64,000 bases of DNA. Origin: Candidatus Jettenia sp. (GTDB lineage Bacteria; Planctomycetota; Brocadiia; Brocadiales; Brocadiaceae). The DNA is taken from positions 2,323,659-2,387,658 of the forward strand of contig CP091278.1 of the NCBI GenBank assembly GCA_021650895.1, read 5' to 3'. Position 1 is the first letter of the stretch, and each line of letters starts with the position of its first letter. A program made the translations under genes and the position numbers. The notes beneath the pieces are model-generated. The model did no database searches, was not told the DNA's origin, and was given only the letters and a program-made list of their open reading frames with translations. Shown here piece by piece: positions 31,965-40,438 of this stretch.

Positions 31965-33680
31965 ATGCGATACTATGCTCTTGCTTGTGATTATGATGAG
32001 ACGCTGGCCTCGAAAGGCCAGGTTGATGAAAAGACTTTAGCGGCACTTGAGCGTTTGAAAAATTCTGGCAGAAAACTAGTGCTGATCACAGGCCGTATAT
32101 TAGAAGAACTTATTCACATCTTTCCTCAGATCAGTATGTTTGATAGAGTTGTAGCTGAGAATGGGGCGTTACTCTATAGACCGGCAACCAGAGAGGAGAG
32201 GCTTTTAGGAGAAACACCACCAGAAGAATTTATTCAGGAGCTTCGTAAAAGAGGTATAGATCCGCTTTTTGTAGGCCAATCAATCGTTTCTACTTTACGA
32301 CCACATGAGACCACGGTGCTTGAAGTAATCCGCGATCTTGGACTTGAAATTCAACTCATCTTTAACAGAGACGCGGTAATGATGCTTCCCTCGGGCATTA
32401 ACAAAGCCACAGGGCTGAGCGTAGCATTATATGAACTTGGCTTATCTTCCCATAATGTTGTTGGTATAGGCGATGCCGAGAATGATCACTCTTTCCTTAA
32501 TGTATGCGAGTTTTCGGTAGCAGTTGCTAATGCCCTTCCTAAGTTGAAAGAACATGTCGATTTTGTTACTCATTCAGACCACGGTGAAGGTGTTACTGAA
32601 CTGGTTAACAAACTTATTATCAACGATCTTGATGAGTTTGAACCGCAGTTGGACCGACACGTAATTTTACTTGGTAAGCGTAAGGATGGACAAGAGGTAC
32701 GAATTAAACCTTACGGTTTGAGTATTTTACTCTCCGGAACGTCTGGAAGTGGAAAATCGACTTTTGCAACGGGTTTTTTAGAACGCGTAGCTGAGCATGG
32801 ATACCAATTTTGCATTATCGACCCTGAGGGAGATTATCTGACATATGACAACGCCGTCGTAATGGGGAATAGCAAGCAAGCGCCAAGCGTAGATGAGGTA
32901 ATAAAACTCCTCGATAAGCCTGAACAAAATTGTGTAGTAAATATGCTCGGAATTACCCTTGCGGATAGGCCAGCATTTTTTGAGGTTCTTTTATCCGCTC
33001 TTTTAGAGCTGAGATCGAGGACGGGGAGACCTCACTGGATAATAATAGATGAGACGCACCATATGTTACCATCATCCTTAACCCCTCCCGAATCACTTAT
33101 AATTCCTAAGGACTTGAGCGGAATGTTATTCATTACTGTTCATCCTGATCACCTTGCCCGTGTCATATTATCAGAAATCAGTGTAATAATAGTTATAGGA
33201 GAATTTCCGGGACAGGCCATTCGCGCCTTTAGTGAAATTCTCGGACAAACTCCGCCGTCGGTCCCGGTAAGCAGACTTAAGCCAGGAGAAGCCATAGCCT
33301 GGTGGAGAAAACCGGAAGCCAGCCCATTTTGGTTTCGCAGTATTCCTCCGCGGTCTGAACGCAGACGTCATCTTCTTAAATATGCTGAAGGAAAATTAGG
33401 CACAGATAAAAGTTTTTACTTCCGAGGTCCGGAAAAAAAGCTTAACCTGCGTGCTCATAATCTTATACTATTTATGCACTTAGCTGATGGTATTGATGAT
33501 GATACCTGGATGTTTCACCTTCAAAGAGGAGATTATTCCCGATGGCTTCATGAAGCTATAAAAGACGATGATCTCGCACACGAAGTGAGACGCATTGAGC
33601 AAACAAAGGACATCTCACCTGATAAGAGCCGCTCCTTGATAAGAGAGAAGATTGAAAAACGTTACACGGGTCCTGCGTAA
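31965..33680 (+). CDS. Fusion of HAD-IIB phosphatase and HerA-like P-loop ATPase
   Basis: 571 residues. Residues 1-215 form a Cof/HAD-IIB phosphatase with motif I DYDET (Asp9, Asp11), motif II VLITGR and motif IV GIGDAENDHSFL. A P-loop domain follows, with Walker A GTSGSGKST (258-266), a FCIIDPEGDY strand as in HerA/FtsK-type ATPases and Walker B WIIIDETHH (358-366). The C-terminal 100 residues have a FHLQRGDYSRWLHEAIKDDDLA stretch like DUF5752-type domains. The combination suggests a sugar-phosphate or trehalose-type phosphatase controlled by ATP, but no substrate can be named. Motif I has E where most members have G. Confidence 0.75.
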   Translation: MRYYALACDYDETLASKGQVDEKTLAALERLKNSGRKLVLITGRILEELIHIFPQISMFDRVVAENGALLYRPATREERLLGETPPEEFIQELRKRGIDPLFVGQSIVSTLRPHETTVLEVIRDLGLEIQLIFNRDAVMMLPSGINKATGLSVALYELGLSSHNVVGIGDAENDHSFLNVCEFSVAVANALPKLKEHVDFVTHSDHGEGVTELVNKLIINDLDEFEPQLDRHVILLGKRKDGQEVRIKPYGLSILLSGTSGSGKSTFATGFLERVAEHGYQFCIIDPEGDYLTYDNAVVMGNSKQAPSVDEVIKLLDKPEQNCVVNMLGITLADRPAFFEVLLSALLELRSRTGRPHWIIIDETHHMLPSSLTPPESLIIPKDLSGMLFITVHPDHLARVILSEISVIIVIGEFPGQAIRAFSEILGQTPPSVPVSRLKPGEAIAWWRKPEASPFWFRSIPPRSERRRHLLKYAEGKLGTDKSFYFRGPEKKLNLRAHNLILFMHLADGIDDDTWMFHLQRGDYSRWLHEAIKDDDLAHEVRRIEQTKDISPDKSRSLIREKIEKRYTGPA

Positions 33681-34845: not shown

Positions 34846-37031
34846 ATGTTTCTATTAAAAGATATTACTGAAAATCAGCGTGAAGCTGTTACTCATATGG
34901 AAGGCCCTCTCCTCATCATAGCGGGAGCCGGTAGCGGCAAAACCCGTGTAATTACACGTCGCATTGGTTACCTGGTATCACAGGGTATAAATCCATATAA
35001 CATATTAGCCATCACCTTCACAAATAAAGCAGCCGATGAAATGTGTGAACGCATAAAACAATTCCTATCACAAAAAGGACTGTGGATATCCACCTTCCAC
35101 AAAATGTGTTCACGGATACTCAGAAATAATATCGAAAGACTGGGATACTCAAAAGACTTTAGTATCTACGATACCACTGATCAACTGAACCAAATTAAAT
35201 CCATTATGGCAGAACTCCAGTTTGACACTGCTCAATGGAAACCTCGTACGATAGCAAGCACTATCAGCCACGCTAAAAATAAACTCATAAATCCTGAAAC
35301 CTTTGCGTCTACCGCATCAGGATATTATAATCGTATTGTCGCTCAAGTTTATACAAAATACCATGCAGTCCTCAAGACTAACAATGCCCTTGATTTTGAT
35401 GATCTACTCATCAAAACTATAGAACTATTTAAGACACATACCGATATTTTAGAGATGTACCAGGAAAAATTTAAGTTCGTTCTCGTTGACGAATACCAGG
35501 ATACTAATTACACTCAGTATACCATCACACGAATGCTTGCCAGTAAATACAGAAACATCTGTGTAACAGGCGACCCTGATCAGTCCATCTATGGATGGCG
35601 TGGAGCGGACATCAGAAATATTATGGATTTTGAAAAAGATTATCCAGACGCTAAAGTCGTGCTGCTAGAGAAAAACTATCGTTCTACAAAGCGTATTCTT
35701 CATGCAGCCTCCAGCGTAATCCAGCAAAACAGATACAGAAAACAAAAGAAACTTTGGACAGAGAATGTAGAGGGTGAAAAAATCAAGGTAATCCATTGTG
35801 AGGATGAACACGGAGAAGCGGAAGAAATTGCAAAGTCAATTAGAATGCTTAATACAAAAGGGGTAAAGTACTCGGATATTGCATTATTCTATCGTACCAA
35901 CGCTCAATCTCGAGTTCTTGAAATATCTTTAAGAAATCACGGGATCCCGTATAGGATCATTGGTGGTGTAGAATTTTATCAAAGAAAAGAGATTAAAGAT
36001 GTATTGTCTTATCTCAGACTCTGTATTAACCCTCAGGATAGAATAGCACTGGAACGCACGATCAATACACCCACACGAGGTATAGGAAATACCACCATAA
36101 AAAAACTGGAAGACTGGGCAACAGCACAAAACACCAGCCTCTTCAATGCCTTACAGCAAGTCAGTTTAATACCAGAAATTAAAGGGCAAGGTACTTTATC
36201 CATAAAAAAATTCACCGAACTCATTTTACATCTGCAACAATTACCAAAGTCACCTGTGGAAAATATCATTAAACAGGTCATTCAAGAGACAAGATATATA
36301 GAGTTTCTGAGAGAATCTGGAGAAAAAGAATCAAAAGACCGTATTGCGAACGCGGAAGAACTTGTTAATGCTGCTTACGAATATGACATGAACTATTCTG
36401 AAGGTACCTTACAAGGATTTTTAGAAGAAGTAGCCCTGGTTTCTGATGTCGATGAACTACAAGAAGATACCCGGGCAGTGACCCTTATGACATTCCATAC
36501 CGCTAAAGGATTGGAATTTCCCGTTGTTTTTATTACCGGTATGGAAGAAAAGTTATTGCCACACGCGGAATCTACGGATTCAGATGATAAGATCGAAGAA
36601 GAACGAAGGCTCTGTTATGTAGGAATTACCCGGCAATGAGTGAGCTCTTCCTTACCCATACCAAGAGGCGGATGCGATATGGACAAATGAATTTTTGTGT
36701 CCCATCCAGATTTTTGGATGAGATTCCAAAAGAAATTGTAATTCACGTTGATAAAACAAATTATAGTTACGCTGATGATACTTACAACAAAAGCAATTCA
36801 TCGTATGATACAGCGTTTAATACGGATGATATAACTATCCCTGACGATCCGTTAAAAGAAAATTTGGTACCCATTTCAAGCGGGGAGATTGTTAGGCACC
36901 CTGTTTTTGGCATAGGAAGGGTGCTTGAGGTTTCTGGTAGCAAAGATAAGATATGTGCCAAGATCAATTTTAATGTTGGTGGAATAAAGAATCTTATGCT
37001 AGCATATGCAAAGTTAGAAAAGATACGGTAA
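34846..37031 (+). CDS. UvrD/PcrA-type ATP-dependent DNA helicase (frameshifted)
   Basis: Superfamily 1 helicase: Q-motif LTENQREAV-like start, Walker A AGAGSGKTRV (about residues 27-36), motif II VDEYQDTN, motif III TGDPDQSIYGWRGAD, motif IV region NYRST, motif V TFHTAKGLEFPVVFI and motif VI RRLCYVGITR. The frame breaks in motif VI at 36632-36633, where one more G restores ITRAMSELFLTHTKRRM. The remainder runs to 37031, about 728 residues in all. The C-terminal tail (IVRHPVFGIGRV...) resembles the PcrA tail that binds RNA polymerase. It acts in repair and in clearing conflicts. The break may be a sequencing error. Confidence 0.88.
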
Positions 37032-37056: not shown

Positions 37057-38232
37057 ATGGGAAAAATATATATGGATAATGCCTCGGGTACACCGATGCA
37101 TTCCAAAGTAATAGAAATCATTACTCAATTCCTACACAAGGGATTTGGAAACCCCTCCAACTTGCATCAATTCGGAAGGGTTACCAATGAAGCTTTACAG
37201 GAGGCAAGAGGGCAAGTAGCGAATCTTATCAATGCAAAACCCAATGAGATTATATTTACCTCCAGCGGTACTGAGGCCAATAACTTTGCTTTAAAAGGTC
37301 TACTGGCTGCTCATAAAAAAAAGGGAAACCACGTTATTACATCGCAGATTGAACATTTCTCTGTGCTTAATCCCTTAAAATCTCTGGAAAAATCGGGATA
37401 TACAGTTACCTACTTACCCGTTGATAAATATGGAATGGTAAATCCCGCTGATATCAAAAAAGCCATTACCCCTACAACAACATTGGTATCCATTATGTAT
37501 GCAAATGGTGAGATTGGGACTATCGAGCCAGTTAAGGAGATTGGAGCTATAGCAAAAGAGAACAGCATTCTTTTTCATACAGATGCCGTTGCTGCAGTGG
37601 GAAATATACCCATTGACGTTAAGGATACTCACATTGACGCCCTCAGTATGTCGGCAAATCAATTTAACGGTCCAACAGGAGTTGGGGCGCTTTACCTCAG
37701 GGAAGGAGTAAGGATACTTCCTCTCATAGAAGGTGGAGTGCAGGAGGGCGGGCGCAGGTCAGGAACAGAAAATAGTATCGGTATTGTTGCTATGGGTAAA
37801 GCAGCCGAACTAGCAAAACAAGAGATGTCAGAAAGGGTAAATAAAGTCCAGAAGCTGAGGGATCTATTAAGAGAAGGTATTTTAAAAAATATTAGTCATG
37901 TTTACGTTAACGGACATGCAACGAATCGTATGCCCGGAAACCTCAGTTTATGCATAGAGTATATTGAGGGCGAATCTATTTTATTATTTCTGGATATGCA
38001 GGGGATTGCCATCTCCAGTGGTTCTGCATGTACCTCGAGGTCACTGAAGGCGTCGCACGTTATCATGGCTACAGGTGTTGATGCTGCGCTTGCTCAGGGG
38101 ACAGTGCTTTTTAGTTTGGGAGTCAACAATACCGAGGACGATGTTACCTATGTTTTGGAAAAACTGCCATCCATTGTTGAGCGTTTAAGGCAAATGTCTC
38201 CTCTGTATAGTCAGAAACAGATGAAAAATTAG
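37057..38232 (+). CDS. NifS/IscS-like cysteine desulfurase homologue lacking the PLP lysine
   Basis: 391 residues of aminotransferase class V fold: YMDNASGTP start, SSGTEANNFAL, IEHFSVLNP (His100 over the cofactor ring) and the cysteine loop SSGSACTSRSL (persulfide Cys). The PLP-binding segment reads SANQFNGPTGVGALY where family members read S-x-H-K-x-x-GPKGxGALY, so the lysine is Gln202 and the histidine Asn201. The glutamine normally in HxDAxQ is Ala179 (HTDAVAAVG). The gene is otherwise intact and heads an operon with nifU/iscU and a TusA gene. Archaeoglobus IscS is a known homologue without the lysine. It may be a sulfur carrier or scaffold rather than a normal desulfurase. Confidence 0.85.
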   Translation: MGKIYMDNASGTPMHSKVIEIITQFLHKGFGNPSNLHQFGRVTNEALQEARGQVANLINAKPNEIIFTSSGTEANNFALKGLLAAHKKKGNHVITSQIEHFSVLNPLKSLEKSGYTVTYLPVDKYGMVNPADIKKAITPTTTLVSIMYANGEIGTIEPVKEIGAIAKENSILFHTDAVAAVGNIPIDVKDTHIDALSMSANQFNGPTGVGALYLREGVRILPLIEGGVQEGGRRSGTENSIGIVAMGKAAELAKQEMSERVNKVQKLRDLLREGILKNISHVYVNGHATNRMPGNLSLCIEYIEGESILLFLDMQGIAISSGSACTSRSLKASHVIMATGVDAALAQGTVLFSLGVNNTEDDVTYVLEKLPSIVERLRQMSPLYSQKQMKN

Positions 38233-38254: not shown

Positions 38255-38689
38255 ATGCAATACAGTCCAAAGGTTATGGATCATTTTGCTAATCCCCGGA
38301 ATGTGGGAGATTTCTCTGATGCCGATGGCGTGGGAGAGGTTGGAAATCCTGCTTGTGGCGATATTATGAAGATGTCTATCAAGGTTAAGGACAATGTAAT
38401 TGTCGATGTAAAGTTCAAGACGTTCGGCTGTGGTGCAGCCATTGCTACCAGTAGTATTTCTACAGAAATGATTAAGGGAAAGACCTTAGATGAGGCCTTA
38501 AAACTTACCAACAAGGCAGTAGCAGAGGCGTTAGGGGGACTACCCCCGGCTAAAATGCATTGCTCTGTGCTTGCCGAAGAGGCAATTGAGGCTGCCATAG
38601 ACGATTATCTCAAGAAGACTACGGGCAAAGGCCTTGAGAAGAAGAAAGAGCTTCCACACGATGAACACCACGAGCACGAGAAGGCTTGA
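38255..38689 (+). CDS. Fe-S cluster assembly scaffold, IscU/NifU N-terminal type
   Basis: 144 residues. Three cluster cysteines are in place: NPACGD, FGCGAAIATSS and KMHCSVLAEEA. The last differs from the usual MHCSxLG pattern only slightly. The C-terminus carries an acidic/histidine tail (DEHHEHEKA) that might bind metal. It assembles 2Fe-2S clusters with sulfur from its NifS partner, encoded 22 bp upstream. An AAGGAG ribosome site precedes the ATG. Confidence 0.92.
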   Translation: MQYSPKVMDHFANPRNVGDFSDADGVGEVGNPACGDIMKMSIKVKDNVIVDVKFKTFGCGAAIATSSISTEMIKGKTLDEALKLTNKAVAEALGGLPPAKMHCSVLAEEAIEAAIDDYLKKTTGKGLEKKKELPHDEHHEHEKA

Positions 38690-38749
38690 AAAAGAAATAA
38701 ATATTGATAATTCCTTTCCATGTAAATATAAACAAATGTGGATTATATT

Positions 38750-38980
38750 ATGAAAGCAGATGAAACATTAGATTGCTTTGGGCTTATGTGCCCTATGCCT
38801 ATCTTTAAGACGGCAAATAAAATCAAAGATATTGAAACAGGTAAGGTGCTTGAGATTATTGCCACAGACGAAGGCATAAAGAAGGATATTGTTTCCTGGT
38901 GTAATACCACAGGGAATGAGCTATTGGGTATCGAAGAAGCAGAGGGAGAGATTCATGTTTTTATTAAAAGGCTAAGATAG
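38750..38980 (+). CDS. TusA-family sulfurtransferase
   Basis: About 76 residues from the ATG at 38750; a GTG at 38738 would add four. The hallmark CPMP (in DCFGLMCPMPIFK) carries the persulfide cysteine, and the C-terminal half (EIIATDEGIKKDIVSWC) matches the SirA/TusA fold. TusA proteins relay sulfur between proteins for tRNA thiolation, molybdopterin or dissimilatory sulfur pathways. It is the third gene of the nifS-nifU-tusA run. Confidence 0.9.
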   Translation: MKADETLDCFGLMCPMPIFKTANKIKDIETGKVLEIIATDEGIKKDIVSWCNTTGNELLGIEEAEGEIHVFIKRLR

Positions 38981-39277: not shown

Positions 39278-40438
39278 TTGAAGAAAGAACATCAAATCAA
39301 ATCGCAGCATTATTTGAGGCATATCGACAAGCTTCATGAAGTACTGCAAGAACCCCGTTTATACGATTTTCTGGCTCATCGGTATTCTCACTACGAGATT
39401 CTTGAGCGTTGTGGAAAAATATATCCGGTTGCCATTCTCGATAAGACACTTCGTAAAGCTACCGATCATGATCCAATAGTTGTTGCTCCAAAAAAATGGA
39501 ATTTGGAAACGACGGGGTTTATAATCAAGGATCCGGCGTATCGGACGTTTCTTGAGTTGATTGGAAATTTGATTATACCAAACGAAACATACCGGATGGT
39601 TAATATTAAGCAAACTACACATGGAGCAACGATCCATTGTGATATAGGACGGTATGACTGCATGATAGATACGTGCGACTGTTTGGGGTGGGAGGTCTTG
39701 AAAGTGTTGTCTGAAGCCTCACGCTGGCAAACCATGTCATTTGGGGAACTCTTTGAAAAGCTCAAGCTAAGAACGTATTTGCATGCACAGGTTAAAGACC
39801 CTCTCGTAAATGGAACGAGAAGAAGCGTTGCCATTGCAGTTTCTGTATTGACATCTTTCTTCCATGGAGATGAGCTAAGGTTTTTCCTTGGCTGCAAATC
39901 GACAAAAGGACTCAATGCTGGACAGACACATGTTATACCTTCATTTATGTTTCAACCAGAACAGGGGTATAGGAATGAAGAGTTTTGTCTGCTCCATAAT
40001 GTTCGACGGGAGTTCCTGGAAGAATTGTTTGGAGTGAAAGCTCCGAAAGGCGCCTCCTATCGCTGGTTCTTTCAGCACAAACCTATTCAATATCTGGATA
40101 AGATGCTAGAGGCTGGGGAAGCAGAGCTGTGGCTTACTGGTGTGGTCGTAAACCTTATGAATTTGCGTCCGGAAATTTGTATGCTGCTTCGCATCAAAAC
40201 TCCCCAGTGGTATGCAATTCACTCTTCAGTCCATACGAGACCCGGTGAGCGTATTCAGATAAATGAAGAGTTTGCAACGATACACGAGTGCAGAGGAAGC
40301 CGTAGAGAATCCGTACCCAGGAAATTCGATAGTGATGCGGAATTATTTCATAGTGCATCTCTAAACCCAGGAGATATCGTTCCCCCTGGTGCAGCGGCAT
40401 TCTGGTTGGGTGTCGATGCCCTGCGAAAATTGCCTTAG
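39278..40438 (+). CDS. Uncharacterised protein with a degenerate Nudix-like box
   Basis: 386 residues from a TTG start (39278). There is no signal peptide or membrane segment. A stretch near residues 250-262 (VRREFLEELFGVKAP) recalls the REUXEEXGU core of a Nudix box, but the upstream glycine and glutamate are not correctly spaced. I have seen similar REFLEELFG proteins annotated as transcriptional regulators in actinobacteria, without proof. It is the first gene of the accessory island and has repeats on both sides (MITE-like at 39.1 kb, R5 at 40.45 kb). Confidence 0.5.
   Translation: MKKEHQIKSQHYLRHIDKLHEVLQEPRLYDFLAHRYSHYEILERCGKIYPVAILDKTLRKATDHDPIVVAPKKWNLETTGFIIKDPAYRTFLELIGNLIIPNETYRMVNIKQTTHGATIHCDIGRYDCMIDTCDCLGWEVLKVLSEASRWQTMSFGELFEKLKLRTYLHAQVKDPLVNGTRRSVAIAVSVLTSFFHGDELRFFLGCKSTKGLNAGQTHVIPSFMFQPEQGYRNEEFCLLHNVRREFLEELFGVKAPKGASYRWFFQHKPIQYLDKMLEAGEAELWLTGVVVNLMNLRPEICMLLRIKTPQWYAIHSSVHTRPGERIQINEEFATIHECRGSRRESVPRKFDSDAELFHSASLNPGDIVPPGAAAFWLGVDALRKLP

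What the first reader, a model, noticed from the sequence alone, without database searches (positions are those of the whole stretch)
37057..38232. NifS-like protein without the PLP lysine, still in an Fe-S operon
At the expected S-x-H-K position the protein has SANQFNGP: Lys becomes Gln202, the adjacent His becomes Asn201, and the cofactor-binding Gln is Ala179 (HTDAVAA). The persulfide cysteine loop and the IEH histidine remain, the frame is intact, and scaffold and TusA genes follow at once. Codons read directly: TCG GCA AAT CAA TTT. Archaeoglobus IscS is a published precedent for a lysine-less IscS that works with IscU. This operon may therefore use a non-desulfurase scaffold or accept sulfide instead of cysteine sulfur.
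Basis: partly seen in the sequence, partly recalled or inferred. Interest (0 to 1): 0.6.

Follow-up and report, generated by a model that had tools for sequence, protein, structure and literature searches.

The report
Iron-sulfur builder without its catalytic lysine
In this anammox bacterium a gene that looks like a sulfur-extracting enzyme has lost the amino acids needed for that chemistry but is kept intact beside its iron-sulfur scaffold gene; the same has happened across many bacteria and archaea, usually next to a sulfur-carrier gene (TusA) that may supply the sulfur instead.

Summary
The 391-aa NifS/IscS homologue (37057-38232) has Gln202 for the PLP lysine, Asn201 for the adjacent His and Ala179 for the PLP Gln. 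It has also lost the substrate Arg (Leu351). The Cys325 loop, His100 and the IscU-docking residues remain. It is not an error: about 30 orthologues in the family share the changes, and dN/dS is low (0.04-0.10). The complete genome holds other intact desulfurases and no SUF scaffold. Lysine-less IscS is already known from Archaeoglobus fulgidus (no desulfurase activity; loop Cys ligates the cluster on IscU).

New here: the type forms a broad bacterial clade (anammox, Nitrospirota, others) besides the archaeal one. Where flanks are visible, tusA lies beside 125 of 176 degenerate iscS genes and 0 of 80 canonical ones; A. fulgidus itself has tusA-dsrE-iscS-iscU.

Best explanation: a non-desulfurase IscS that docks IscU, offers Cys325 as ligand or persulfide relay, and receives sulfur from TusA. 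Loss of desulfurase chemistry is strongly supported; the TusA route is inference. Phylogeny-corrected statistics lack power, and one versus two origins is undecided (AU 0.035 and 0.076).

The parts
37057..38232 (+). Lysine-less NifS/IscS homologue (391 aa), class V aminotransferase fold
   Evidence: Aminotran_5 E 7.8e-80; best NCBIfam model TIGR03402 at 519.8 bits, below its cut-off 530.75; model pLDDT 91, TM 0.9 or more to NFS1, E. coli IscS, A. fulgidus IscS
37354..37356 (+). His100 codon, equals E. coli IscS His104, retained
37507..37509 (+). Gly151 codon, where E. coli IscS has Asn155
37591..37593 (+). Ala179 codon, where E. coli IscS has the PLP-contacting Gln183
37657..37662 (+). Asn201-Gln202 codons in place of His205-Lys206 (PLP Schiff-base lysine)
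   Evidence: conserved in all family orthologues
38029..38031 (+). Cys325 codon, the loop cysteine (E. coli Cys328, A. fulgidus Cys321), retained in all 191 degenerate loci
38107..38109 (+). Leu351 codon in place of the conserved Arg of the (I/L)R-F-SLG motif
38255..38689 (+). iscU: scaffold with Tyr3, Cys37, Asp39, Cys63, LPPxK, His105 and Cys106 (E. coli numbering) all retained
   Evidence: (TIGR03419 210 bits, cut-off 187.9)
38738..38980 (+). tusA-family sulfurtransferase (GTG start as listed; ATG at 38750 possible), CPxP motif present
   Evidence: (PF01206 E 4e-23)
34846..37031 (+). uvrD/pcrA-type helicase directly upstream, read as two frames because of a 1-base difference from relatives; conserved upstream neighbour

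Best explanation
The protein is an IscS-fold partner of IscU that can no longer take sulfur from cysteine, because the Schiff-base lysine, its neighbouring His, the PLP-contacting Gln and the substrate Arg are all gone. It still docks IscU and offers the mobile-loop Cys325 as a fourth cluster ligand, a persulfide relay, or both, as shown structurally for A. fulgidus IscS. The sulfur for the cluster comes from a protein-bound donor, most likely the co-encoded TusA (with DsrE in Archaeoglobi), loaded elsewhere, in anammox for example by the intact NifS or from sulfide assimilation. Shown here: residue losses, conservation, operon, link to TusA. Published for the relative: no desulfurase activity, Cys ligation. 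Inferred: transfer from TusA to IscS/IscU.
For: Residues and codons. Same changes in all family orthologues; dN/dS 0.04-0.10 where dS is not saturated, about the level of the intact NifS (0.02 and 0.09). Loop Cys kept in 191 of 191 degenerate loci. IscU-contact residues E309, G310, E311, R379, S384, P385 and L386 of E. coli IscS (contact regions from PMC2854127) are kept or nearly so, and the partner IscU has every ligand and Tyr3. The genome has an intact NifS beside a full NifU and no SufB/D, so general cysteine desulfuration is covered elsewhere. tusA within 1.5 kb: 125/176 degenerate, 0/80 canonical; at under 80% identity 47/63 against 0/53. tusA is downstream in anammox, upstream in archaea and many Nitrospirota. 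A. fulgidus: one of two iscS copies lies in tusA-dsrE-iscS-iscU, and the only other class V protein found is aminotransferase-like, not a desulfurase. A. fulgidus IscS lacks desulfurase activity and its Cys321 ligates [2Fe-2S] with three IscU cysteines (PMC7585200; PMC9769115; PMC8617193).
Against: No biochemistry on any bacterial member. 51 of 176 degenerate loci with both flanks seen have no tusA close by, including a second family of the order (probably Scalinduaceae), where iscU is unlinked too. TusA-contact residues known from E. coli IscS are not conserved in degenerate proteins, nor in canonical ones, so docking cannot be argued from sequence. In E. coli, TusA accepts sulfur from IscS and competes with IscU (PMC11302665), the reverse direction. 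Phylogenetically independent contrasts are too few (1 to 3 pairs) to test the association. Residues that still frame PLP (His104, Asp180, Ser203 equivalents) are retained.
Confidence: 0.55

Rival explanations
1. Same non-desulfurase co-scaffold, but the sulfur is free sulfide; TusA is a neighbour for another use (tRNA or cofactor thiolation).
For: Sulfide is the Fe-S sulfur source in Methanococcus maripaludis, which lacks a desulfurase (PMC10500019). 51/176 degenerate loci lack a nearby tusA, among them Methanoperedens relatives that keep iscSU adjacent.
Against: 0/80 canonical loci have tusA while 125/176 degenerate ones do, in two different gene orders; a generic neighbour should also occur beside canonical iscS. 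The anammox genome has a second tusA in a sulfite reductase/cysteine synthase cluster for other uses.
Confidence: 0.25
2. It keeps a PLP- or PMP-dependent activity by unusual chemistry, or binds cofactor non-covalently, and acts on another substrate.
For: His100, Asp176, Ser199 and Thr72, which frame PLP, are kept. From my own recollection of the A. fulgidus crystal paper (PDB 4hvk; not read here), PMP was found in the pocket.
Against: Gln, His, Lys and substrate Arg tend to be lost together in both clades, and the lysine position is free to vary (Q, D, T, E, R, N, S, P, A, M, I), which is not how a new catalytic residue behaves. No new conserved lysine.
Confidence: 0.1
3. A regulatory pseudo-enzyme: it heterodimerises with the intact NifS or titrates IscU/TusA rather than building clusters.
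For: The genome also has intact NifS proteins.
Against: It has its own iscU in the operon; and several archaeal genomes, A. fulgidus among them, carry only lysine-less IscS and no canonical partner to regulate.
Confidence: 0.08
4. A decaying gene or a sequencing error.
For: The uvrD gene just upstream does have a 1-base difference that breaks its frame.
Against: Same residues in every family orthologue; strong purifying selection; intact frame and high-confidence fold.
Confidence: 0.02

Closest known systems
Archaeoglobus fulgidus IscS (PDB 4eb5, 4eb7, 4hvk, 4r5f) in the IscS-IscU complex
   Same: Lysine lost, with Gln->Ala, His->Asn and substrate Arg->Leu; loop Cys kept; iscU next door; the other A. 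fulgidus copy has tusA-dsrE upstream.
   Different: Asp instead of Gln at the lysine position; archaeal clade, tusA upstream; about 45% identity. No bacterial member has been tested, as far as I found.
Methanosarcina acetivorans IscS1
   Same: Reported as lacking the essential lysine and PLP-binding residues, with iscU1 adjacent (PMC7585200).
   Different: Archaeal; formed inclusion bodies when expressed, so untested; not aligned by me.
Canonical IscS/NifS cysteine desulfurase (E. coli IscS, human NFS1, the window genome's own NifS at L002)
   Same: Fold, loop Cys, IscU-docking residues.
   Different: The window protein lacks Lys, His, Gln, Asn and substrate Arg of the active site; it has tusA beside it, never seen beside the canonical genes sampled.
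Nitrospirota MHKL-type IscS (L066, L067 and others)
   Same: Same bacterial clade; Gln and substrate Arg lost; iscU and tusA downstream.
   Different: Keeps the lysine and His; loop reads SGSTC; may be an intermediate form.

Membership tests
Active cysteine desulfurase (NifS/IscS) | Class V aminotransferase fold, Aminotran_5 | tested here: met
Active cysteine desulfurase (NifS/IscS) | Schiff-base lysine (E. coli Lys206) | tested here: not met
   Gln202
Active cysteine desulfurase (NifS/IscS) | PLP-contacting Gln183 and substrate-binding Arg354 | tested here: not met
   Ala179, Leu351
Active cysteine desulfurase (NifS/IscS) | Persulfide-forming loop cysteine | tested here: met
   Cys325
Active cysteine desulfurase (NifS/IscS) | Score above the curated NCBIfam NifS cut-off | tested here: not met
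   519.8 against 530.75 bits; an archaeal and a Nitrospirota degenerate relative do pass it, so the cut-off does not separate the types
Active cysteine desulfurase (NifS/IscS) | PLP-dependent release of sulfur from cysteine | not testable with these tools
   needs purified protein
A. fulgidus-type lysine-less IscS | Lysine lost with the loop cysteine kept | tested here: met
A. fulgidus-type lysine-less IscS | Adjacent IscU with all cluster ligands | tested here: met
A. fulgidus-type lysine-less IscS | Common descent with the archaeal lysine-less clade | tested here: inconclusive
   Separate clades on both trees; holding them together costs about 30 log units, AU p 0.035 and 0.076
A. fulgidus-type lysine-less IscS | Loop cysteine ligates the [2Fe-2S] cluster on IscU; no desulfurase activity | not testable with these tools
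   published for A. fulgidus only
E. coli-type ISC operon | iscR-iscSUA-hscBA-fdx neighbours | tested here: not met
   Neighbours are uvrD upstream, iscU and tusA downstream, then an ORF without Pfam match; E. coli operon. Whether the chaperones lie elsewhere was not searched.

The most novel reading that the evidence does not exclude
A cysteine-desulfurase-independent way of feeding IscU, widespread in anaerobic bacteria and archaea: TusA (with DsrE in Archaeoglobi) delivers persulfide sulfur to a catalytically dead IscS whose loop cysteine relays or ligates it, so sulfur flows from TusA to IscS, opposite to the E. coli direction. It may have arisen twice with the same set of active-site losses.
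Probability: 0.4. Interest if true: 0.8.

Novelty: new variant of a known kind. Interest (0 to 1): 0.6.

Why it matters
The A. [quoted passage not shown] The conserved residue set, its spread over anammox, Nitrospirota and archaea, and the tusA(-dsrE) linkage show that the lysine-less form is a maintained protein type, and they name a candidate sulfur donor that can be tested with purified proteins. It also shows that automatic annotation can name such proteins cysteine desulfurases although they lack the catalytic lysine, which affects predictions of how anaerobes obtain sulfur for Fe-S clusters.

Tried and rejected
Sequencing error or decay: rejected by orthologues and dN/dS. A replacement lysine in the pocket: none found. 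E. coli TusA-contact residues as evidence of docking: uninformative, since they vary in canonical proteins too. A phylogeny-corrected test of active-site loss against tusA: too few independent pairs. One clade of all degenerate proteins: disfavoured but not cleanly rejected (AU 0.035 with 69 rows, 0.076 with 82 rows). Papers: the 2022 minimal-ISC evolution paper is not held; searches for earlier reports of the tusA link or of lysine-less IscS in anammox or Nitrospirota found none, but only open-access papers are held.

Full report
1. Observation. The window lies in a complete 3.82 Mb genome (G000, 99.9% complete) whose nearest named relative among the fetched contigs is Candidatus Jettenia ecosi (L043, 98% identity in this protein). 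The ORF 37057-38232 encodes 391 aa. In an alignment with E. coli IscS (sequence from NC_000913), Lys206 is Gln202, His205 is Asn201, Gln183 is Ala179, Asn155 is Gly151 and Arg354 is Leu351, whereas His104, Asp180, Ser203 and Cys328 are conserved as His100, Asp176, Ser199 and Cys325. That Arg354 binds the substrate carboxylate and that Gln183 and His205 contact PLP is general knowledge of the family, not tested here.

2. Not an artefact. Of 33 genomes in the family, 30 (the window's own included) have a full or nearly full orthologue (74-100% identity), two have fragments, and one 58%-complete genome has none. All those examined, and 22 contigs from a second collection (partly the same genes), keep Ala179, Asn201, Gln202, Cys325 and Leu351. 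Nei-Gojobori dN/dS between the window and relatives is 0.08-0.10 within the genus and 0.04-0.07 across genera where dS is not saturated; the intact NifS gives about 0.02 and 0.09 within the genus, and IscU has no amino-acid change there. The AlphaFold model has mean pLDDT 91 and matches human NFS1, E. coli IscS and A. fulgidus IscS with TM-scores of 0.91-0.97 to the query.

3. Surroundings. iscU follows after 22 bp and tusA 48 bp after iscU. The IscU has every ligand-type residue and Tyr3. uvrD lies 25 bp upstream and keeps that place in most of the family and in a second family of the order. No terminator-like site was found in the region. The genome has three other NifS-type proteins with intact active sites: L002 beside a full-length NifU, L003 fused to a molybdopterin-oxidoreductase-like protein, and L001, SufS-like, behind a ThiF/MoeB-like gene. 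There are two NifU_N proteins, two TusA proteins and no SufB/D core (with all 14 control genomes positive).

4. How far the type extends. In the order, f3 (unnamed; probably Scalinduaceae) has an orthologue with 60-63% identity (xSNQ/xGSQ) still behind uvrD, and a second lysine-less paralogue (TSHT, ASQP, TSQS) near thioredoxin genes; its iscU (67-76% identical to the window's) lies elsewhere. Elsewhere, lysine-less forms occur in Nitrospirota (AHQL, AHQV), Dehalococcoidia, Desulfohalobiaceae, Troglogloeales, Krumholzibacteriota and Coatesbacteria, and in Hadarchaea, Bathyarchaeota, Methanoperedens relatives, Methanothrix, Thermoplasmata and Archaeoglobi-like genomes (SSND/SSNE) (organism names from record titles, G genomes unnamed). 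Over all loci sampled, 191 are degenerate (lysine lost, or Gln and Arg both lost) and 91 are canonical QHKR; the loop Cys is kept in all 191. Some loci are the same gene from two collections.

5. Phylogeny. With the active-site columns removed, the degenerate proteins form two groups separated by canonical enzymes: a bacterial clade containing the window protein (support 100/100; 99) and an archaeal one containing A. fulgidus (SH-aLRT 89; in the smaller tree A. fulgidus itself strays, with one archaeal clade not rejected). Forcing one clade of all degenerate proteins costs 29-32 log-likelihood units, AU p 0.035 and 0.076. Convergent loss of the same residues is therefore favoured but not established. 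Nitrospirota MHKL proteins, which keep the lysine but have lost Gln and Arg, sit inside the bacterial clade; either the lysine was lost more than once there or it was regained.

6. TusA. A tusA gene on the same strand within 1.5 kb occurs at 125 of 176 degenerate loci with a determined state and at 0 of 80 canonical loci. After dereplication at 80% identity the counts are 47 of 63 and 0 of 53, Fisher p 7e-19, a figure that ignores relatedness. The gene is downstream in anammox and some Nitrospirota and upstream in archaea, other Nitrospirota and Desulfohalobiaceae, so the linkage was formed more than once or rearranged; parsimony needs 10 changes of the tusA state on the tree. Phylogenetically independent pairs number only one to three, too few for significance. 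The tblastn detection threshold depends on database size and undercounts (for example L259 is positive and negative). Pfam confirms the TusA assignments in five other loci, and a DsrE protein in the Hadarchaeum locus.

7. A. fulgidus. G475 contains an IscS that is 376/377 identical to the crystallised chain (L289) and a second copy (L232) in the order tusA-dsrE-iscS-iscU, with another DsrE-like ORF downstream (the DsrE calls here are by eye from similarity to the Hadarchaeum protein). Its only other class V hit is an aminotransferase-like protein without the desulfurase features. Three similar genomes checked (G547, G460, G382) show the same picture. So in such archaea the lysine-less IscS is the only NifS-type protein found.

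8. Mechanism. Published work on A. fulgidus gives no desulfurase activity and ligation of the [2Fe-2S] cluster by three IscU cysteines and IscS Cys321, which aligns with Cys325 here. The window protein has the same losses and keeps the same cysteine and IscU-contact residues, so I infer the same role. The added step, that TusA brings the sulfur, rests on gene linkage. In E. coli, TusA takes sulfur from IscS and competes with IscU, so the proposal reverses the known direction. Free sulfide is the main rival.

9. Verdict. The feature is real and conserved. Membership in active cysteine desulfurases fails on three tested residues; it works like A. fulgidus IscS, but common descent with it is undecided. 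The kind is known; the broad bacterial clade and the tusA linkage are what I did not find described in the open-access papers searched.

Noticed in passing
window 36590-36650: The uvrD/pcrA gene upstream is split into two frames by one base fewer than in two same-genus relatives; a sequencing indel or a recent frameshift.
   Followed up: partly
L003 (G000:C1:3235283-3239365); also G016, G018, G020, G021, G024, G320 and others: An intact NifS domain is fused to the C-terminus of a molybdopterin-oxidoreductase-like protein (open frames of about 1,130-1,177 aa in relatives, 681 aa here), an unusual fusion that may sulfurate its own cofactor.
   Followed up: no
L225 (G000:C1:795500-801500): Second tusA in a cluster with a DsrE-like protein, a sulfite-reductase-like protein, cysteine synthase and a JAMM/MPN-like protease, next to Rieske and cytochrome b genes; looks like a protein-thiocarboxylate route to cysteine (functions by eye, not by Pfam).
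   Followed up: no
L131, L135, L132 and relatives: A second lysine-less NifS paralogue in the order (TSHT, ASQP, VGHA at the motif), near thioredoxin and CcdA-like genes, or with iscU in L132; the lysine position varies freely.
   Followed up: partly
L066, L067, L263, L265 and relatives: Nitrospirota IscS with the lysine and His kept but Gln->Met, Arg->Leu and loop SGSTC, with iscU and tusA downstream; a possible intermediate or a different function.
   Followed up: partly
P0002 and L066:5272-6420: NCBIfam TIGR03402 'cysteine desulfurase NifS' accepts these degenerate proteins above its cut-off, so they would be annotated as active enzymes.
   Followed up: yes
window 31965-33680: A HAD-type hydrolase fused to a HerA/DUF87-like ATPase domain.
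   Followed up: no
window 39278-40438: A 386-aa ORF after tusA with no Pfam match; found next to tusA in the same-genus relatives only (77-89% identity in the parts seen).
   Followed up: no
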